A stretch of DNA of 64,000 nucleotides from Sediminibacterium ginsengisoli (GTDB lineage: Bacteria; Bacteroidota; Bacteroidia; Chitinophagales; Chitinophagaceae): positions 1 through 64,000 of the forward strand of contig CAMDLR010000008.1 in the NCBI GenBank assembly GCA_945901845.1, read 5' to 3'. Within the stretch, counting starts at the first letter, position 1, and each line of letters opens with the position of its first letter. Positions 44,469-53,894 of this stretch are shown piece by piece. The position numbers and the translations under genes are program-made. Under the pieces are notes generated by a model. That model had not been told where the DNA came from. It searched no databases and worked only from the letters and a program-made list of their open reading frames with translations.

Positions 44469-45390
44469 ATTTTTGAGTTGATGTGATTTGTAAAAAATAA
44501 TCTTCCAATGAATGCATGGGCTTTACAGATAATACACCAATACCCATTTCAACTAAATTTTTATGTAAGTTTGGTAAATATTTTTCGTCGAGCTGCATAA
44601 ATATCTCTTTATCTTTAGACCGGTTCACAAGCACCTGCTTTGCCCAGCTTGATTGCAATAGCAGTTCGGTTGCCTGTTTATTATCAAGGGTTTGAATAGC
44701 AACCACGGTTTTACTGGTATCAAATAATTCTTTGCTATCCCCTTCTACTAATTTGCAGCCTTTATCAATAATGATAAGCCTTGTGGCCACCTGTTCTATT
44801 TCAGATAAAAGATGCGAAGAAACCAGCACTGTTTTCCCTTGCTCCCTACTCAATTGTAAAATTAAATTTCTTATATCTGCAATACCTTGTGGATCTAATC
44901 CATTGGTAGGTTCGTCGAGTAATATGAGCTCCGGATCATTAACCATCGCCATGGCAATGGCAAGTCGTTGTTTCATCCCTTGCGAAAAAGTACCCACATT
45001 ATCCTGCGCTCTTGTAGCTAAACCCACCACGTCTAATTCCTGCAATAGCTGCGTTTTGCTTTTTGAAACACCACTTAATGCCGAAAATATTTTTAAGTTT
45101 TGATAGGCAGTTAAATACTCATACATCGCAGGTTTTTCAATAACTGCGCCTACTTTTTGCATGATTGCAGAACGGTTGGCTGCCAGTGGTAAGCCAAATA
45201 TTTCAATTTCTCCGGCCGTTGGCTCAATAAGCGAAAGCAGCATACGAATGGTGGTGCTTTTACCCGCGCCATTTTGCCCTAAAAAGCCATACACATCACC
45301 CTTATGCACAGAGAAGGATAAATCATTAACTGCTGTAAACTGCTGACCAAAATTTTTGGTGAGCCCCCGCACTTGAATAACTGAAGACAT
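44461..45390 (-). CDS. ABC transporter ATP-binding protein
   Basis: 309 residues. Walker A GQNGAGKST (about 38-46), signature FSQGMKQRL, Walker B LILLDEPTNGLDP and the His switch (SSHLL) are intact. A C-terminal extension of about 85 residues follows the ATPase core, as in NatA/DrrA-like exporters. It overlaps the permease gene by 8 bases. It begins 87 bases after the ATP synthase operon end, from which a bidirectional-looking terminator separates it. Confidence 0.9.
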   Translation of the reverse strand: MSSVIQVRGLTKNFGQQFTAVNDLSFSVHKGDVYGFLGQNGAGKSTTIRMLLSLIEPTAGEIEIFGLPLAANRSAIMQKVGAVIEKPAMYEYLTAYQNLKIFSALSGVSKSKTQLLQELDVVGLATRAQDNVGTFSQGMKQRLAIAMAMVNDPELILLDEPTNGLDPQGIADIRNLILQLSREQGKTVLVSSHLLSEIEQVATRLIIIDKGCKLVEGDSKELFDTSKTVVAIQTLDNKQATELLLQSSWAKQVLVNRSKDKEIFMQLDEKYLPNLHKNLVEMGIGVLSVKPMHSLEDYFLQITSTQKYV

Positions 45391-45425
45391 GATATTATAA
45401 CAAACAACCCTGCAAGATGTTCACA

Positions 45426-45458
45426 ACAAAAAAGCCCCCGCAAATGCGGAGGCTTTTT
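45426..45458 (-). terminator. Terminator of the atp operon
   Basis: A GC-rich stem with one mismatch (45431-45442 with 45447-45458, 4-nt loop); the minus strand continues TTGTTGTG after a paired T-run. It is 19 bases past the atpA stop. A matching A/T composition on both sides could also act on the plus strand. Confidence 0.75.
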
Positions 45459-45476
45459 AAAATATAGACAGTGCTA

Positions 45477-47054
45477 TTACTTGTATTGAGGCATTAACCC
45501 TTTAGCTAATTCAACCATTTTATTAAGGCCATCTTCAGGTAAATCTCCTTTTTTGAACGCAGCTAAAACTTCAGGTAATTTGTTTTCCATTTCCATTAAA
45601 AAATGCGCTTCAAATTCTTTTACATTTTTAACAGCTACTTCACGAAGTAAACCTTGTGTACCTAAATAAATGATCGCAACTTGCTTTTCAACAGTAAACG
45701 GCGTGTACTGAGCTTGCTTTAAAATTTCAACGTTACGTGCACCTTTATCGATTACAGATTTAGTTGCAGCATCAAGGTCTCCACCAAATTTAGAGAAAGC
45801 TTCTAACTCACGGTATAAAGCTTGGTCTAATTTTAAAGTACCCGCTACTTTTTTCATTGACTTAATTTGCGCGTTACCACCCACACGACTTACAGAGATA
45901 CCTACGTTAATTGCTGGACGAATACCTGCGTTAAATAAGTTGCCTTCTAAGAAAATCTGACCATCCGTAATTGAGATTACGTTTGTAGGGATATAGGCAG
46001 AAACGTCACCGGCTTGTGTTTCAATAATTGGAAGTGCCGTTAATGAACCACCACCTTTTACTAAATGCTTGATAGACGCTGGTAAATCATTCATATTTTT
46101 TGCAACATCATCATTTGCGATAACTTTTGCAGCGCGCTCTAATAAACGGCTATGCAAATAGAATACGTCACCAGGATATGCTTCACGTCCAGGAGGTCTT
46201 CTTAAAAGTAATGATACCTCACGGTAAGCAACTGCTTGCTTAGATAAGTCATCAAATACAATTAAAGCAGGTCTACCAGTATCACGGAAGAATTCTCCAA
46301 TCGCTGCACCAGCAAATGGCGCATAGAATTGTAGAGGAGCTGGATCTGCAGCTGGAGCAGCAACAATTGTTGTATATGCCATCGCACCGTTGTCGGCAAG
46401 TGTTTTCATAACACCAGCAACAGTAGATGCTTTTTGACCAATTGCTACATATATACAATAAACAGGCTTACCTGCATCGTAGAATTCTTTTTGATTGATA
46501 ATGGTGTCAACACAAATAGCTGTTTTACCCGTTTGACGATCACCAATAACCAACTCACGTTGACCACGACCTACCGGAATCATGGCATCGATTGCTTTGA
46601 TACCTGTTTGTAAAGGTTCTTTAACTGGCTCACGATAAATAACACCCGGCGCTTTACGCTCAAGTGGCATTTCATATAATTCACCGGCAATTGGACCCTT
46701 ACCATCGATAGGCTCACCAAGTGTATTGATCACACGACCAACAACTCCTTCACCAACTTTGATAGAGGCAATCATGCCAGTTCTTTTAACTTTTGCTCCT
46801 TCTTTAATGGAACCACTCTCTCCCATCAATACCACACCCACATTGTCTTCTTCAAGGTTAAGGGCAATGGCTTTTGTTCCATTTTCAAATTCTACTAGTT
46901 CACCACTGCGTACGCCGTTAAGGCCATATACACGGGCAATACCGTCTCCCACTTGTAATACGGTACCTACTTCCTCTAAGTCAGCACTTGCATTAAAATT
47001 GCTTAATTGCTGTCTGAGTATCGCTGATATTTCATCGGGTTTAATGTCGGCCAT
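45477..47054 (-). CDS. atpA: ATP synthase F1 subunit alpha
   Basis: 525 residues. Regulatory nucleotide-binding subunit of the F1 head. P-loop GDRQTGKT (171-178), signature [14 protein letters not shown], and the catalytic-interface arginine within that last motif are seen. Length is slightly above E. coli's 513. It is the last gene of the operon here; atpG (gamma) does not follow, unlike in many bacteria. Confidence 0.97.
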
Positions 47055-47081
47055 GATATTCTATTTATAAATGATGATTTA

Positions 47082-47645
47082 TTATTTTATTTGCGGAACA
47101 AATAAGTTCTGCTGAAATTGTTTTTTAATATCTCTTAAATCTCTTACCACACTTGCATCTACTAGGTTGTTATCAAACTCTAATACAAATCCACCAATTA
47201 ATGAAGGATCTACTTTAGATACTAATTCTACACTTGCAAACGAATGGGCTGTTTTTACTTTTTGCGCAATGGCATGTTGCAATTCGGCGCTCACTTCTAC
47301 AGCAGTAGTAAGGGTCACTTTATGAATGTCTTTTAAAGCATTGTATTGTTCTACAAATGCAGTCGCAATTTCTGGCAAATCACTTTCTCTCCCTTTTCTA
47401 ACGAGTAGGTTATTAAAAGCAGCTGTAAGTTCACTTAGCTTTCCAGTTGTAACCGCAGCTATAATGCTATTTTTTTGATCGGCTTTAATGATGGGGCTAC
47501 GCAAAAGATTTACGAAATCTGAGCTAGCCGCACATACAGCCTGCAAATATTTCATGTCTGCATAAGCTGTATCCAACTGGCCTTTTTCGATGGCTAGGTC
47601 CAATAAACTTTTTGCATACCTGCTGGCTAATCTTGGATTGGGCAT
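47082..47645 (-). CDS. atpH: ATP synthase F1 subunit delta
   Basis: 187 residues. Peripheral stalk protein that links F1 alpha to subunit b. N-terminal LASRYAKSLLDLA, central LLRSPIIKADQK, and the C-terminal VDPSLIGGFVLEFDNNLVDASV segment are OSCP/delta signatures. It is 5 bases after atpF and 27 before atpA. Confidence 0.95.
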   Translation of the reverse strand: MPNPRLASRYAKSLLDLAIEKGQLDTAYADMKYLQAVCAASSDFVNLLRSPIIKADQKNSIIAAVTTGKLSELTAAFNNLLVRKGRESDLPEIATAFVEQYNALKDIHKVTLTTAVEVSAELQHAIAQKVKTAHSFASVELVSKVDPSLIGGFVLEFDNNLVDASVVRDLRDIKKQFQQNLFVPQIK

Positions 47646-47650
47646 TTTGC

Positions 47651-48169
47651 TTAGTTTAATTTAACGCCTTCAGCTAATTCGTTGATATATGTTTCTTGTG
47701 CTGCTTTATTGCTTAATTCTTTGTGCAACACTTTTTCTGCTACTTCAATAACAAGCGCACCTACTTGATTTTTTACATCAGTTAATGCAGCATTTTTTTG
47801 TTGGTTGATGGCAACTTGTGCATCAGCAACAATTGAATCGTACTGTGCTTTTGCTTTTTCTTTAGCATCGGCAACCATTTTGTCGGCAGTTTCTTTTGCT
47901 TCTTTGATCAAAGTAGCTCTTTCTTCACGTGCCTTTGCTAACAAAGCTTCGTTTTCAGATTGCATAGTAGCTAACTCAGACTTCATTTTGTCAGCCCTTG
48001 CTAAAGCATCTTCGATACCTTGCTCACGATCATTGATCGCTTTTAAAATAGGTTTCCATGCAAATTTACCTAGTACTACTAATAGCAAAAGGAATGCAAC
48101 GGTGTTCCAGAATACAAGTCCGATATCAGGTAATACCAGCGGATTGATCTCTAACAACATAAAAGACAT
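47651..48169 (-). CDS. atpF: ATP synthase F0 subunit b
   Basis: 172 residues. One N-terminal membrane helix (about 12-35) and a long Ala/Glu/Lys-rich alpha helix (about 40-160) that dimerises as the peripheral stalk; ILKAINDREQGIEDAL is conserved. A second ATG three codons in (48160) could be the start. Just upstream lies a strong hairpin with T-runs (48180-48235) separating it from atpE. Confidence 0.95.
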   Translation of the reverse strand: MSFMLLEINPLVLPDIGLVFWNTVAFLLLLVVLGKFAWKPILKAINDREQGIEDALARADKMKSELATMQSENEALLAKAREERATLIKEAKETADKMVADAKEKAKAQYDSIVADAQVAINQQKNAALTDVKNQVGALVIEVAEKVLHKELSNKAAQETYINELAEGVKLN

Positions 48170-48179
48170 TTATCTTAAT

Positions 48180-48235
48180 TAAAAAAAATCTTGAAAAAAT
48201 ACAAGGTCTGTTGCCCTTTGCGCGAGACCTTGTAT
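48180..48235 (-). terminator. Terminator-like hairpin between atpE and atpF
   Basis: A perfect 11-bp stem (48199-48209 with 48225-48235, 15-nt loop) followed on the minus strand by five T, then after seven bases a run of eight T. It ends 11 bases before the atpF start, inside the operon. Confidence 0.7.
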
Positions 48236-48248
48236 AACATTTTACGGA

Positions 48249-48479
<231 letters not shown>

Positions 48480-48507
48480 TTATTGAAAAAAAAGTTATTA
48501 AAATATT

Positions 48508-49653
48508 TTAATGATGAGCCGCTTCTCCATGTGCGTCATGGTGATGCTCCTCTGTGGCCATTCCAATATACATCGCAGCAAGCATGGTAAAGATGAAGGC
48601 CTGCAAAAATGCAACCAACAACTCAATTAGACCAATAAACACTGCGAATGGAACAGCAATTGCTGAAGCAAAAACCGTTTTGAATATGAAGATCAAACAA
48701 ATCAAACTTAATACTAGAATGTGGCCTGCAGTAATGTTCGCAAACAATCGAATCATTAAAGAGATAGGCTTTGTAAACACACCAATTAACTCGATGGGTG
48801 CTAAAAATAATTTCATGCTCCAGTGCATGCCTGGCATCCAAAAAATGTGTTCCCAGTAGCTTTTATTAGCGCTCACATTAACCACGATAAACACAAATAC
48901 AGCAAGTGTCATAGTAAATGCAATGTTACCGCTCACGTTGGCCCCACCTGGAAAAAATGGAATAAGTCCTAAAAAGTTATTGATTAAAATCAAAAAGAAA
49001 ATCGTTAATAAAAACGGCATGTATTTGCCCGCTTTTTTTGCACCAATATTTGGAATAGCCACTTCATCTCTTACAAATAAAATAATAGGCTCCATAAAAG
49101 ATTGAAGTCCTTTAGGTGCCGATTTTACACCTGTTTTTTTATACCCTGCAGCAGCACTTAATAATAATACTAGTAAAATAAAAACAGAAACAAATAAACT
49201 TGCTACGTTTTTAGTAATAGAAAAATCCCATAATTGTTTGCTTGCTTCCTCATCAACGTTTCCGCTAGCGTCAACAATTTTTGTTTTGCCTTTAATTAAT
49301 TTATAGTCAAAATTGCCTTTGTAAATCGCTGGTTCGTGGTGCTCGTCTACTAATTTTTCAGAGGAGAAAACCTCGAAACCTTTAGACGTTTTTAAAATAA
49401 CAGGCAAGTAAATGGATGTGTGACCCCATAAATGCCAGCTATGGTCATCTTTGATATGCTCTAAAATGGTTTCGGTAACATTAAAATCACCCTCTTTTTT
49501 AGCACCATGCCCTTCTGTTGCAGGTGTAGCTTCTACACCCGCTCCTGCAGGTGCTGGTGTATGATTTTCCCCAGCAAATGCCTCGGTCGCTAACAGCAAC
49601 GAAAAAACGCTGAAAGTCTTTATCAGTAAAGATTTAATGCTTCTAAACGTCAT
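48508..49653 (-). CDS. atpB: ATP synthase F0 subunit a
   Basis: 381 residues from ATG 49653; the frame is open to 49716, but the internal start is next to the signal peptide and just after the promoter. Unlike E. coli's 271, it has an N-terminal signal peptide (about 1-27) and a periplasmic region of about 110 residues with many His (DDHSWHLWGHTSIY), typical of Bacteroidota. Helices follow from about 145. The essential arginine is in the LMIRLFANITAGH helix. The C-terminus ends in a His-rich tail (EEHHHDAHGEAAHH). First gene of the operon. Confidence 0.93.
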   Translation of the reverse strand: MTFRSIKSLLIKTFSVFSLLLATEAFAGENHTPAPAGAGVEATPATEGHGAKKEGDFNVTETILEHIKDDHSWHLWGHTSIYLPVILKTSKGFEVFSSEKLVDEHHEPAIYKGNFDYKLIKGKTKIVDASGNVDEEASKQLWDFSITKNVASLFVSVFILLVLLLSAAAGYKKTGVKSAPKGLQSFMEPIILFVRDEVAIPNIGAKKAGKYMPFLLTIFFLILINNFLGLIPFFPGGANVSGNIAFTMTLAVFVFIVVNVSANKSYWEHIFWMPGMHWSMKLFLAPIELIGVFTKPISLMIRLFANITAGHILVLSLICLIFIFKTVFASAIAVPFAVFIGLIELLVAFLQAFIFTMLAAMYIGMATEEHHHDAHGEAAHH

Positions 49654-49673
49654 ACCTTTCTCGAAATTTGCGG

Positions 49674-49681
49674 CAAAGATA
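49674..49681 (-). promoter_or_regulatory. -7 box of the atp operon
   Basis: TATCTTTG on the minus strand, a full consensus match, 20 nt before ATG 49653. No TTG at the expected spacing. Confidence 0.55.
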
Positions 49682-49756
49682 GGGATTATACCCCTGAAAT
49701 AAGTAAAAGAAAGCAACTAAAATTGAAGAAAAAAGCGGCTTTTTTTGACGCAAAAC

Positions 49757-51574
49757 CTACACAGAATGGGTGTTTTTTGTTTCGAACTGCATTTCGTACA
49801 AACGGGCATAAAAACCGTTCTTTTGAAGGAGTGATTCGTGGTTACCGGTCTCTTTTACCTCTCCCTTATCAAGAACAATGATTAAATCGGCCTTGCGGAT
49901 AGTGGACAGGCGGTGTGCAATAACGATTGAAGTTCTGCCAGTTATGAGTGTTTCAGTGGCTTTTTCAATGAGCTGCTCCGTTTCAGAGTCGACAGAGGAA
50001 GTAGCCTCATCTAGCACCAAAATAGCTGGATTATAAAGTAGCGCCCTTATAAACGAAATAAGCTGTCGCTGACCTAAACTTAAGGTGGCGCCCCGTTCCA
50101 TCACATGATAATGATACCCGCCAGGTAATTGCATGATAAAATCATGTAACCCCATTAGTTTCGCAGCATTCATTACGTCCGCGTCAGAAATATTGGGGTT
50201 TCGAAGGGTAATATTGTCTAAAATAGAGCCAGAAAAAAGAAAAACATCTTGTAAAACCACACCTATATTGCGTCTTAGGCTTTCTAAAGTATACGCTGTA
50301 ACTGGCTTTTGGTCAAGTAATAAATCGCCCTTGTTTATCGTGTAAAGACGGTTAAGTAGGCTTATTATGGAGGTTTTTCCGCTTCCTGTATGGCCAACAA
50401 GTGCTACGGTTTGTCCAGCGACAACAGAAAAATTTATGCCTTTTAAAACGTACTGCTCCGCTTTGTAAGCAAACCAAACATCCTTAAAATCAATATTTCC
50501 TTGTAAAACGCCAGCGTCTACACTATCGATACTGTCCGGCGGCATTTGATCTGGATTGTCCATCACTTTGAACACCCTTTCGGCGGCCACCATGCCCATT
50601 TGAAGCACATTAAATTTATCGGCAATCACGCGAAGTGGTCTAAACAACTGATTTAAATAGAGTATAAAAGACATAAGTAGCCCAGCGTCAAGTGCATTAC
50701 CTGCAATAAACCAAACCAACAGACCGGTACTAATGGCAAGCACCACTTCGACGATTGGGAAAAACACAGAATAGGCAAAAATTGCTTTGATATTTGCCAA
50801 CCGGTGTTCGGCATTAATTTTTTTAAACTTGTCCAGTTCTCGGCCCTCTGCAGCAAAAGCTTGTACCACCGCCATGCCAGACAAATGTTCTTGGATAAAT
50901 GCATTTAAACTGGCCACAGCATTACGCACTTCAACAAAACTTTTATTGACGCTTTCTTTGAAAAAATAGGTAGCAATAATCATGATTGGAAATGGCGCCA
51001 AGCTTACAAGTGTGAGCTGCCAATTTATCCAAAACATGGTACCTAGTGTAAATACAATCGTAAGTAAATCCGCAATGATTGGAATAAGCCCATCCGAAAA
51101 AATATCATTGATCCGCTCAATATCATCGATGGTTCGAGTGGTTAGGGTTCCAATAGGGGTTTTATCAAATTGACGTAAATGAAGACCGACGATTTTTTCA
51201 TAGACTGCTATCCGCAAATCCTTTACTACCCGCTGTCCTAGGGCTGCTGTCATAAATGAAAAGAAAAACCGAATGGCCGTTTCAACAAATAAAAATACCA
51301 CTTGAAAAAGGGTTACCGCGATGATAAATTTAGAAGCATCGGACAAATGTTGCTCGGCAATAAACAAGCGCAGCCAGGCCGGAATATGCACTGCTTTTCC
51401 GGTGGCCATATCCACTGTCAATTGAATTAAATAAGGACGAACTGGCGCAAAAATAGCCATCACGATAGCCAGCAAAACACTTCCATAAAAAATGACACGG
51501 TAGGGTTTTACAAATTTGAAAACCCGTACTAATAATAAAAAACTAAATACTTTTTTAGGTGCCGACGTGCTCAT
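49757..51574 (-). CDS. ABC exporter, fused permease and ATPase
   Basis: 605 residues from ATG 51574. Six membrane helices in the N-terminal half (about 15-330) and a nucleotide-binding domain in the C-terminal half with Walker A VGHTGSGKTS, signature LSLGQRQL and Walker B LVLDEATSSVD. Family: MsbA/MdlB-type half-transporters that work as dimers. Lipid or drug export is typical, but the substrate is not readable from sequence. It diverges from rel with only 58 bases between start codons. Confidence 0.9.
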   Translation of the reverse strand: MSTSAPKKVFSFLLLVRVFKFVKPYRVIFYGSVLLAIVMAIFAPVRPYLIQLTVDMATGKAVHIPAWLRLFIAEQHLSDASKFIIAVTLFQVVFLFVETAIRFFFSFMTAALGQRVVKDLRIAVYEKIVGLHLRQFDKTPIGTLTTRTIDDIERINDIFSDGLIPIIADLLTIVFTLGTMFWINWQLTLVSLAPFPIMIIATYFFKESVNKSFVEVRNAVASLNAFIQEHLSGMAVVQAFAAEGRELDKFKKINAEHRLANIKAIFAYSVFFPIVEVVLAISTGLLVWFIAGNALDAGLLMSFILYLNQLFRPLRVIADKFNVLQMGMVAAERVFKVMDNPDQMPPDSIDSVDAGVLQGNIDFKDVWFAYKAEQYVLKGINFSVVAGQTVALVGHTGSGKTSIISLLNRLYTINKGDLLLDQKPVTAYTLESLRRNIGVVLQDVFLFSGSILDNITLRNPNISDADVMNAAKLMGLHDFIMQLPGGYHYHVMERGATLSLGQRQLISFIRALLYNPAILVLDEATSSVDSETEQLIEKATETLITGRTSIVIAHRLSTIRKADLIIVLDKGEVKETGNHESLLQKNGFYARLYEMQFETKNTHSV

Positions 51575-51583
51575 AGTGAAATG

Positions 51584-51591
51584 CAAATGTA
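51584..51591 (-). promoter_or_regulatory. -7 box of the ABC exporter gene
   Basis: TACATTTG on the minus strand, 9 nt before ATG 51574. Confidence 0.5.
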
Positions 51592-51616
51592 AGCACAAAA
51601 AAAGCGGGCTAATTCG

Positions 51617-51624
51617 TATATTCG
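51617..51624 (+). promoter_or_regulatory. -7 box of rel
   Basis: TATATTCG, one mismatch from TAnnTTTG, 8 nt before ATG 51633 and 25 nt from the opposing box. Confidence 0.4.
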
Positions 51625-51632
51625 TAAAAGAT

Positions 51633-53894
51633 ATGGATCAGGACCCGCAAATGAGTGCCGAACATGCACTTCCAAAATATAATTTAAACGCCGAGCAAGA
51701 GAAAAACGAAATCGTTAGGCATTACCGTGCACTCTCACGAAGCTTGCGCCCTAAATTAAAAAAAGGCGATAAAGAACTGGTAAGGCAGGCTTTTGAAATG
51801 GCTGCCGATGCGCACAAAACCATGCGCCGAAAAAATGGTGAGCCGTATATTTTGCATCCCATTGCTGTTGCCATGATTTGTGTAGAAGAAATTGGCTTAG
51901 GGGTAAGAAGTACTATTTGCGCACTCTTACACGACACGGTAGAAGATACCGATATTTCGCTTGAAGACGTACAACGTGAGTTTGGTACCGAAATCGCAAA
52001 AATTGTGGATGGCCTTACCAAAATTTCTACGGTAATGGACACCAATACTTCGCAACAAGCAGAAAATTTTAAAAAGATTTTATTAACCCTTACCGATGAT
52101 CCTCGCGTGATACTTATTAAACTAGCAGACCGCTTACACAATATGCGTACGCTAGACCATATGAAAAAAGAAAAGCAATTAAAAATTGCTTCCGAAACTA
52201 TTTGGGTATACGCACCGCTTGCGCACCGAATGGGATTGTACAATGTAAAAACAGAGCTCGAAGATTTATCCATGAAATACATGGAGCCAGAGGGATACAA
52301 AGACATTGCACAAAAATTAGCAGAAACAAAAAGAGAACGTACCAGGTATATCAATGAGTTTGTAAAGCCTATTAAAGAGAAATTAACAAATAGTGGTTTT
52401 GAATTTGAGATACATGGTAGACCTAAAAGCATACACTCCATTTGGAATAAAATAAAAAAGAAAGGTGTTGCTTTTGAAGAAGTGTATGACCTTTTTGCCA
52501 TTCGAATTATTTTAGATTCGGCGCCAGAAAAAGAAAAAGAAGATTGTTGGAAAGTATATTCGACAATCACAGACGAATACATGCCATCTCCAGAGCGTTT
52601 AAGAGACTGGCTGAGTAACCCCAAAAGCAATGGATACGAGGCTTTGCACACAACTGTAATGGGGCCACAAGGCAAATGGGTAGAGGTTCAAATTCGTTCT
52701 AAACGTATGAACGAAATTGCAGAAAAAGGTTTAGCCGCGCATTTTAAATACAAAGAAGGAAACGATTCAGAAGACCGTTTTGATAAATGGTTTGGACAAA
52801 TTAGAGAAGTATTAAGTACACAAGATGGTGCAGGCCTAGATTTTTTACAGGATTTTAAAACTTCGTTTTTAGCGGAAGAAATTTACGTGTACACGCCAAA
52901 GGGTGAAGTAAAAATGCTACCCACTGGAAGCACCGCACTAGACTTTGCATTTGCTATTCACTCTGCAGTGGGATCTAAATGTATTGGTGCTAAAGTGCAA
53001 CATAAATTAGTGCCATTAAGTCATCTGCTTCGCAGTGGAGATCAGATAGAAATTATTACAAGTAACAAACAAAAACCTTCCGAAGATTGGCTCGGTTTTG
53101 TAGTAACGGCGAAAGCAAAAAATAAAATTAAAGATGCGTTAAGGGAAGAAAAAAGAACCATTGCCGAAGATGGAAAATATGTGCTTCAACGCAAATTAGA
53201 GAGTATGGGTGCGACTTATAGCCAGCATAACATAGACGAGCTGGTACATTTTTATAAGCTGCCATCGGGTCTCGATTTGCATTATAAAATTGCGACCAAA
53301 TCTCTTGATTTAAAGGAACTTAAAGACTTTACGGTACATGGCGATAAAATTGAACTTCCAAAGCCAAAGCCAAGTTTGAGTGAGATCAGCACCGAACCGG
53401 GAGCTGGCAAAATCTACTCTAAAAAAGAATCTGAACTCATAATTTTTGGAGAAAGCAGTGATAAAATCAAGTACGCCCTTGGCAGGTGTTGCAACCCAAT
53501 ACCAGGTGATGATGTATTTGGCTTTGTAAGTACCGGCAAAGGCCTCATAATACATAGGACCAACTGCCCCAATGCTACCCAATTATTAGCCAATTACGGA
53601 CACCGAGTTGTTAAAACCAAGTGGGCTAAAAACAAAGAAATATCATTTTTAACGGGTCTTAAAATTGTAGGACTCGACGATGTGGGGGTTATCAATAAAA
53701 TTACCAATATTATTAGTGGTGATTTACGCATCAATATTGCAGGCCTTACCATCGAATCCAAAGAAGGCCTTTTTGAGGGTACCATAAAAATATTTGTACA
53801 CGACAAAGAAGAGCTAGAAGCACTTGTTACTAGGCTAAAAGCCCTTCATGGGATCCAAACCGTAGACCGGTTTGACGCAGAAGCAGAAAATTAA
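51633..53894 (+). CDS. rel: Bifunctional (p)ppGpp synthetase/hydrolase Rel
   Basis: 753 residues from ATG 51633; the frame is open upstream to 51516 but that part overlaps the divergent exporter gene. The N-terminal HD hydrolase domain has LLHDTVEDT, so hydrolysis of ppGpp is likely retained. The synthetase domain follows (YDLFAIRIIL, PKSNGYEALHTTV, EVQIRSKRMNEIAEKGLAAH). A TGS domain (YTPKGEVKMLPTGSTALDFA), a Cys-containing zinc-finger-like region (LGRCCNPIPGDDV) and a C-terminal ACT domain complete the long Rel/SpoT form. It controls the stringent response. Confidence 0.94.
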   Translation: MDQDPQMSAEHALPKYNLNAEQEKNEIVRHYRALSRSLRPKLKKGDKELVRQAFEMAADAHKTMRRKNGEPYILHPIAVAMICVEEIGLGVRSTICALLHDTVEDTDISLEDVQREFGTEIAKIVDGLTKISTVMDTNTSQQAENFKKILLTLTDDPRVILIKLADRLHNMRTLDHMKKEKQLKIASETIWVYAPLAHRMGLYNVKTELEDLSMKYMEPEGYKDIAQKLAETKRERTRYINEFVKPIKEKLTNSGFEFEIHGRPKSIHSIWNKIKKKGVAFEEVYDLFAIRIILDSAPEKEKEDCWKVYSTITDEYMPSPERLRDWLSNPKSNGYEALHTTVMGPQGKWVEVQIRSKRMNEIAEKGLAAHFKYKEGNDSEDRFDKWFGQIREVLSTQDGAGLDFLQDFKTSFLAEEIYVYTPKGEVKMLPTGSTALDFAFAIHSAVGSKCIGAKVQHKLVPLSHLLRSGDQIEIITSNKQKPSEDWLGFVVTAKAKNKIKDALREEKRTIAEDGKYVLQRKLESMGATYSQHNIDELVHFYKLPSGLDLHYKIATKSLDLKELKDFTVHGDKIELPKPKPSLSEISTEPGAGKIYSKKESELIIFGESSDKIKYALGRCCNPIPGDDVFGFVSTGKGLIIHRTNCPNATQLLANYGHRVVKTKWAKNKEISFLTGLKIVGLDDVGVINKITNIISGDLRINIAGLTIESKEGLFEGTIKIFVHDKEELEALVTRLKALHGIQTVDRFDAEAEN

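What the first reader, a model, noticed from the sequence alone, without database searches (positions are those of the whole stretch)
48180..48235. Strong terminator-like hairpin between atpE and atpF inside the ATP synthase operon
A perfect 11-bp stem followed by T5 and soon by T8 on the transcribed strand sits in the only large gap (79 bases) of an otherwise tight operon. The c subunit is needed in many copies per complex and lies just upstream, so partial termination or 3' end protection here would give an atpBE-rich mRNA. Hairpin and genes are seen; the stoichiometry role is inference.
Basis: partly seen in the sequence, partly recalled or inferred. Interest (0 to 1): 0.62.

Follow-up and report, generated by a model that had tools for sequence, protein, structure and literature searches.

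The report
Conserved pentaloop hairpin after atpE
Between the genes for the c and b subunits of ATP synthase, this bacterium and most of its relatives keep an RNA hairpin whose stem letters change freely while the letters at its tip stay nearly fixed, which points to an undescribed control element of the ATP synthase message rather than a plain stop signal.

Summary
The hairpin is real: an 11-bp perfect stem, 15-nt tip and U-rich tail in the 79-nt atpE-atpF gap. In Chitinophagaceae it sits at this spot in 110 of 110 readable loci (83 distinct gaps, 47 stems): the stem is rewritten by compensatory changes while the tip keeps GC[AMAGG]GC (80 of 83). A covariance model matches 277 of 294 genomes of the family, and the window's genome only here. 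In other families of the class the same gap carries a covarying hairpin with pentaloop GRWUG: 66 of 95 loci, 49 of 74 families; 0 of 20 loci in other classes. Of 317 other terminator-like hairpins in 760 kb none has GRWUG or AMAGG. Rfam has no match; no description turned up in the papers searched. Best reading: an intercistronic 3'-end element (partial termination and/or 3'-end protection of atpB-atpE mRNA) whose conserved pentaloop is read by an unknown factor. That the element is under selection is near certain; the mechanism is inferred, about 0.5.

The parts
48200..48234 (-). Core of the element as matched by the covariance model (stem, apical 2-bp cap, pentaloop)
   Evidence: R1 match 48200-48234, 43.2 bits, E 2.2e-8 in the genome, the only match at E up to 5
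48225..48235 (-). 5' arm of the stem, AUACAAGGUCU
48199..48209 (-). 3' arm of the stem, AGACCUUGUAU
48213..48221 (-). Conserved tip GCAAAGGGC = GC[AAAGG]GC (pentaloop AMAGG closed by two G-C pairs in most of the family)
   Evidence: GCAMAGGGC in 80 of 83 distinct gaps of the family
48194..48198 (-). U5 directly after the stem
   Evidence: U-rich tail conserved in relatives
48181..48188 (-). second run, U8
   Evidence: also in the very close relatives L003, L032-L034 and L103, not in the family at large
48249..48461 (-). atpE, subunit c of F1Fo ATP synthase, 70 aa, gene upstream of the element
   Evidence: used as anchor
47651..48169 (-). atpF, subunit b, 172 aa, gene downstream of the element
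   Evidence: used as anchor
45428..45458 (-). ordinary strong terminator-like hairpin after atpA (GC-rich stem, 4-nt loop, U6), for contrast: different loop
   Evidence: fold of the stretch downstream of atpA

Best explanation
An undescribed cis-acting RNA element of the ATP synthase mRNA in this class of Bacteroidota, placed directly after the c-subunit gene. SHOWN: a covarying stem, a conserved apical pentaloop (AMAGG in Chitinophagaceae, GRWUG in most other families), a U-rich tail and a fixed position between atpE and atpF. INFERRED: when transcribed, the stem plus U-rich tail ends or pauses a fraction of RNA polymerases and/or forms a 3' end that blocks 3'-5' exonucleases, so that atpB-atpE RNA outnumbers atpF-atpH-atpA RNA, in line with the many c subunits per complex. 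The pentaloop is held constant because a trans-acting factor (most likely a protein) or a specific tertiary fold reads it and sets how much read-through or protection occurs.
For: Position: 110 of 110 readable Chitinophagaceae loci have it in this gap; all 53 model-match loci of the family that were read back lie between atpE and atpF. Structure: 97.8% of cells pair and 11 of 12 pairs show two-sided changes, against 24-47% paired when slid (27 distinct rows); in the other families all 12 pairs show two-sided changes (45 chosen rows). Both apical pairs have compensatory replacements: G-C to A-U in L084 and L085, C-G to U-A in L154 and L346. Loop: 80 of 83 distinct gaps keep GCAMAGGGC over 47 stems. 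In the class 72 of 91 best hairpins have a 5-nt loop, 65 of 72 being GRWUG; strict criterion 58 of 95 loci against 13 of 1900 shuffles. Tail: U-rich in 71 of 83 and 32 of 56. Specificity: one site in the own genome; 0 of 317 other terminator-like hairpins with GRWUG or AMAGG. Precedent for intercistronic stem-loops setting subunit ratios: PMC4423207, PMC5927463, PMC10450193 (passages).
Against: No RNA data of any kind. The U tract is broken in many members (AAUCUUUAAC types), so termination there would be weak, and part of the U count lies inside A-U stem pairs. Partial termination also raises atpB, which is needed once per complex. About a third of the other families of the class (25 of 74) lack the GRWUG loop, and four of 95 loci have gaps too short for the element, so ATP synthase can be built without it. 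Half of the foldable gaps of other classes (8 of 16) also fold with z below -2, without such a loop, so a hairpin as such at this border is not special. No factor is known.
Confidence: 0.5

Rival explanations
1. Processing and stabilisation: an endonuclease cuts in the U/A-rich stretch after the hairpin, and the stem protects the new 3' end of atpB-atpE mRNA (selective RNA processing and stabilisation, no termination at all). The loop would be the docking site of the nuclease or of a protective protein.
For: Long stable stem right after the most needed gene; broken U tracts in many members; A/U-rich stretch downstream of the hairpin in the gaps; the mechanism is documented for operons of complexes, where seven such stem-loops predicted as terminators were argued not to be terminators (PMC4423207, passages; see also PMC5927463).
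Against: Does not explain why U residues directly follow the last G/C of the stem in 71 of 83 distinct gaps. No 5'-end or 3'-end data.
Confidence: 0.25
2. Operator for autogenous control: an ATP synthase subunit or assembly factor binds the pentaloop hairpin and feeds back on read-through or on translation of atpF (or atpE), coupling operon output to assembly state.
For: One model match in the own genome and in each of the 55 matching genomes of the family, the 53 read all in the atp mRNA; loop conserved while the stem drifts; loop swap between families (AMAGG / GRWUG), with one Chitinophagaceae genome carrying GAUUG (L345), as expected of a recognised tip that can co-evolve with its reader.
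Against: No candidate reader was identified; the distance from hairpin to the atpF match varies from 29 to 156 nt, which argues against direct blocking of atpF initiation. Seven genomes have a second, unexamined match.
Confidence: 0.17
3. Ordinary intrinsic terminator or attenuator in which the loop matters only for folding speed or stability, like favoured tetraloops of terminators elsewhere.
For: Terminator-like anatomy; two strong non-atp matches of the GRWUG model in family f46 lie outside genes, one followed by a T run (L301), one between converging genes (L300).
Against: Of 241 perfect-stem and 76 capped terminator-like hairpins in 760 kb of eight related genomes, none has GRWUG or AMAGG and one has AAUGG (the same scans find the atp element in 51 of 95 class loci and 76 of 83 family gaps). 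The strong hairpin after atpA in the same operon has another loop. A generic stabilising loop should recur, but the family model finds one site in most genomes.
Confidence: 0.06
4. The loop pairs with another part of the atp mRNA (pseudoknot or switch).
For: In the window the last codons of atpE hold GCCCUUU, complementary to AAAGGGC of the loop; a permutation test gives an excess of own-loop complementarity at one place (0.30 against a 95% limit of 0.19).
Against: The complement is absent or elsewhere in most relatives listed; the position with the excess reaches only 2.99 of 7 pairs on average, and relatedness was not corrected for.
Confidence: 0.02

Closest known systems
Intercistronic stem-loops of selective RNA processing and stabilisation / differential decay (clostridial cip-cel operon PMC4423207; E. 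coli operons PMC5927463; puf mRNA, cited there)
   Same: Hairpin in an operon gap after a gene needed in excess; upstream RNA expected to be more abundant.
   Different: In the passages seen those are characterised by stem stability; here an apical pentaloop is conserved across a class and a U-rich tail follows. Processing not shown here.
Intra-operon intrinsic terminators that set subunit ratios (archaeal ioTTS, PMC10450193; clostridial ABC transporters, cited there)
   Same: Terminator-like site inside an operon of a multi-subunit complex.
   Different: No conserved loop in the passages seen; the archaeal ATP synthase operon was reported to lack such a site.
Protein-protected ends of chloroplast atp transcripts (PPR10, BFA2; PMC6474325)
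   Same: A factor-bound intergenic segment in an ATP synthase operon that stabilises the RNA carrying the c-subunit gene (atpH; gene identity recalled).
   Different: Plant PPR proteins, at other gaps (atpI-atpH, atpF-atpA); no hairpin needed (recalled), no relationship claimed.
Rfam and published Bacteroidetes motifs (Flavo-1, Bacteroidales-1, Bacteroid-trp, GUCCY-hairpin; PMC2864571)
   Same: Comparative-genomics RNA motifs of the same phylum.
   Different: No Rfam family reaches its gathering score here; the main text of the paper has 0 occurrences of 'atp synth'.

Membership tests
Intrinsic (Rho-independent) terminator | Stable hairpin in the transcript | tested here: met
Intrinsic (Rho-independent) terminator | U-rich tract directly 3' of the stem | tested here: met
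   U5 in the window; 71 of 83 family gaps and 32 of 56 class loci have at least 5 U of 8; not in the rest
Intrinsic (Rho-independent) terminator | Transcription ends there | not testable with these tools
   no RNA data; downstream genes need read-through
SRPS / decay-blocking intercistronic stem-loop | Stem-loop at the 3' border of a stabilised operon segment | tested here: inconclusive
   position and structure fit; no transcript abundance data
SRPS / decay-blocking intercistronic stem-loop | Endonucleolytic processing site and more stable upstream segment | not testable with these tools
   needs 5'/3'-end mapping and half-lives
Known Rfam family | Score at or above a family's gathering threshold | tested here: not met
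   window 44500-52000 and 20 loci: no match reaches a gathering score
Protein operator (autogenous control) | Conserved loop letters on a covarying stem, in the target operon | tested here: met
Protein operator (autogenous control) | A protein that binds it | not tested
   no candidate

The most novel reading that the evidence does not exclude
Probability: 0.25. Interest if true: 0.87.

Novelty: new variant of a known kind. Interest (0 to 1): 0.72.

Why it matters
How one operon yields about ten c subunits for each a subunit is a classic question, answered mainly for E. coli by translation rates (recalled). Here most families of a bacterial class keep a structured RNA exactly at the c/b gene border, with a tip conserved over stems that share no sequence. 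That gives a defined target for 3'-end mapping, pull-down and loop mutants, and it predicts an unknown RNA reader in a major phylum. It also offers a candidate RNA family that Rfam release 15 does not hold.

Tried and rejected
Plain terminator with an irrelevant loop: disfavoured by loop conservation and by the loops of other hairpins. The first scan (241 hairpins, 38 stretches, 760 kb, eight genomes; its last group labels are shifted because two of 40 stretches do not exist) needs a perfect stem of 7 bp next to the loop and is blind to the family's own layout: run on the 83 family gaps it finds 0. I therefore repeated it with right labels and added a scan for a 2-bp cap plus internal loop: that finds 76 of 83 family gaps, and gives 76 hairpins in the 760 kb, of which none has GRWUG or AMAGG and one has AAUGG (genome G009). 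Both scans together find 51 of 95 class loci, so they miss about half of those loci (29 of the 95 lack the GRWUG loop).

Loop paired with the end of atpE: present in the window (GCCCUUU), not consistent in relatives.

Repeat or mobile hairpin: a single DNA copy in the genome and a single model match.

Internal promoter for atpFHA in the gap: the Bacteroidota -7 motif TAnnTTTG (recalled) in 7 of 83 gaps, 4.65 expected from single-letter shuffles.

Known RNA family: none. The weak psbA 3' UTR match on the opposite strand (E 4) was taken as chance.

Three weak family-model matches outside the family (G108, G234, G252) are not at atpE (no AtpE in L143-L145).

A tRNA gene before the GRWUG hairpin of L301: it looked like one by eye, but ARAGORN finds none.

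Circularity to keep in mind: one search kept only the best 80 of 560 relatives. A1 holds 27 distinct rows with one layout out of 83 distinct gaps. A2 holds 45 rows chosen for a GRWUG loop and at least 9 of 12 pairs, so its loop letters and percentage paired are partly by construction; the diversity of pair types is not. Of the 45 GRWUG-model matches next to atpE at E up to 0.01, 25 are from genomes not used for the model. Two of the 58 strict hits (L191, L222) are at places the fold does not confirm.

Full report
WHAT IS THERE. The window lies in a 2.1 Mb genome (G000:C8) whose AtpF is 97-98% identical to that of Sediminibacterium and other Bacteroidetes metagenome genomes; Sediminibacterium is in Chitinophagaceae, Bacteroidota. 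'Family', 'order' and 'class' below are the kinship levels of the genome tool; that the class is Bacteroidia is my inference. The operon runs on the minus strand: atpB, atpE, atpF, atpH, atpA. The atpE-atpF gap is 79 nt and holds a perfect 11-bp stem with a 15-nt tip, then U5 and, five bases on, U8. The stretch folds better than 196 of 200 shuffles and the hairpin alone better than 200 of 200. After atpA there is a different, GC-rich terminator-like hairpin with a 4-nt loop and U6.

THE FAMILY: STEM DRIFTS, TIP STAYS. AtpF was used to fetch the best 80 of 560 named relatives and, of 51 matching among 61 genomes of the genus, the best 30 as loci (the sets overlap). Of the 111 loci then held (two of them the window's own), 110 had both genes readable (L048 is cut off by its contig end); all 110 have the hairpin in the atpE-atpF gap. 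These are 83 distinct gap sequences with 47 different stems. The tip is GCACAGGGC in 67, GCAAAGGGC in 13, ACACAGGGU in 2 and GCACAAGGC in 1; a later set adds GCGAAGGGC (L153) and GUACAGGAC (L154). In 69 of 83 the minimum-energy fold pairs the two outer letters on each side, leaving a pentaloop AMAGG; the window is among the 14 others, with a shifted pairing. ACACAGGGU is a compensatory change of the outer apical pair, GUACAGGAC in L154 and L346 one of the inner pair. On 27 distinct rows of one layout, 97.8% of cells pair, 11 of 12 pairs show changes on both sides, and sliding the partner drops pairing to 24-47%.

HOW COMMON, HOW SPECIFIC. A covariance model from these rows (R1) finds one site in the own genome (150 of 453 first-look candidates scored). 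In the order it matches 55 of 57 genomes of the family, once each, and 3 of 141 others, weakly and not at atpE (the 120 unlisted genomes without a match are taken as other families from the order of the list). All 53 family matches read back lie between atpE and atpF. The two missed genomes were read: G178 carries the GU[ACAGG]AC form, and G247 a hairpin with pentaloop GAUUG, the form of other families. In a larger draw 277 of 294 genomes and 87 of 92 genera match; I did not check the place of the newly drawn ones. Seven genomes show a second match, not examined; of the 17 without a match only G178 and G247 were read. Over 100 sources held here, those of the model included, 99 have a match at the expected place, L048 being the cut one; two weak matches lie on the opposite strand of the same hairpins.

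BEYOND THE FAMILY. One to eleven loci per family were read for 74 other families of the class (95 loci) and 16 families of other classes (20 loci). In the class, 66 of 95 loci and 49 of 74 families have a hairpin with pentaloop G-R-W-U-G. The best hairpin has a 5-nt loop in 72 of 91 gaps long enough to fold, and 65 of those 72 are GRWUG: GGUUG 47, GAUUG 16, GAAUG 1, GGAUG 1; the other seven are AAUGG (f31), GCCUG (f38), GCGAU, GCUUG, GUUUA, GUAUG and GUUGA. By a strict criterion 58 of 95 loci qualify against 13 of 1900 shuffled gaps. None of 20 loci of other classes qualifies by either criterion, though L285 (f82) has GGUUG letters between short GG/CC arms. Folding energy is below z -2 in 76 of 91 class gaps and 8 of 16 of other classes, so hairpins as such are not unique to the class; the loop is. 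Misses in the class: four loci with gaps under 35 nt, 25 families without the loop. In the class alignment all 12 pairs show two-sided changes (rows selected, see Tried and rejected). Some members outside the family share its 3x3 internal loop under two apical pairs, for instance AAA/GGA in L181 of family f6 and in L078 or L101 of the family, which suggests common descent with a changed pentaloop. GRWUG, AMAGG, AAUGG and GCCUG all begin with a purine and end with G.

SPECIFICITY OF GRWUG. A model of that form (R2) searched in 148 class genomes gives 51 matches at E up to 0.01; 45 lie just downstream of the AtpE match and 6 elsewhere. Three of the six were inspected: L300, between a gene that looks like an ECF sigma factor (by eye) and a converging gene; L301, outside listed ORFs, with a T run behind and a tRNA-like stretch before it in which ARAGORN finds no tRNA; L302, opposite strand, in the gap or at the start of a plus-strand gene, depending on its start codon. 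L300 and L301 are from family f46, whose G316 locus has only an 18-nt atpE-atpF gap. In 38 random 20-kb stretches of eight genomes, 241 perfect-stem and 76 capped terminator-like hairpins include none with GRWUG or AMAGG and one with AAUGG (sensitivity on true elements 51 of 95 class loci and 76 of 83 family gaps).

FUNCTION. Shown: structure, tip, place, U-rich tail (71 of 83 in the family, 32 of 56 in the class, against 9.8% of background positions in the first 100 nt after atpE of 115 non-family loci; in the family the count includes U of A-U stem pairs). Inferred: partial termination or 3'-end protection in favour of atpB-atpE RNA, tuned by something that reads the tip. In the family the hairpin starts 8-27 nt after the atpE stop in 77 of 83 distinct gaps and ends 29-156 nt before the atpF match, so it is tied to the end of atpE rather than to the start of atpF. 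I found no consistent pairing partner for the loop and no promoter signal in the gap.

LITERATURE. Nine searches showed no description of this element. Passages only were read of PMC4423207, PMC7366714, PMC10994844, PMC2864571, PMC9723704, PMC8040213, PMC5927463, PMC6474325 and PMC10450193. Two B. thetaiotaomicron maps have no occurrence of 'ATP synthase' or 'atpE' in the main text. The 2017 list of 224 candidate RNAs is not held, so prior listing there is not excluded.

VERDICT. The hairpin is not a chance terminator: it is one member of a conserved, apparently undescribed RNA element of the ATP synthase operon in this bacterial class. Its kind (intercistronic hairpin that shapes an operon's RNA) is known; its conserved pentaloop and its wide, one-place distribution are new as far as I could search.

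Noticed in passing
L345 (genome G247), atpE-atpF gap: A Chitinophagaceae genome whose hairpin has the GAUUG pentaloop of other families instead of AMAGG, a natural loop swap within the family.
   Followed up: partly
L300 2535-2563 (-) and L301 1394-1422 (+): GRWUG pentaloop hairpins outside the atp operon in two genomes of family f46, one between converging genes, one with a T run behind and a tRNA-like stretch before it (no tRNA by ARAGORN); the G316 locus of that family has only an 18-nt atpE-atpF gap.
   Followed up: partly
L231 (family f31) and L238 (family f38), atpE-atpF gap: Further pentaloop variants at the same place: GGC[AAUGG]GCC and AGC[GCCUG]GCU.
   Followed up: no
L285 (family f82, another class), atpE-atpF gap: GG[GGUUG]CC letters inside a hairpin outside the class; it fails both criteria used here, but hints at an older origin.
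   Followed up: no
window 48170-48182 (-) and relatives: An AUUAAGAUAAA-like string just upstream of atpF recurs in many close relatives; perhaps part of the translation start region.
   Followed up: no
G465, G482, G488, G523, G618, G673, G679: Seven Chitinophagaceae genomes show a second match of the family model; not examined.
   Followed up: no
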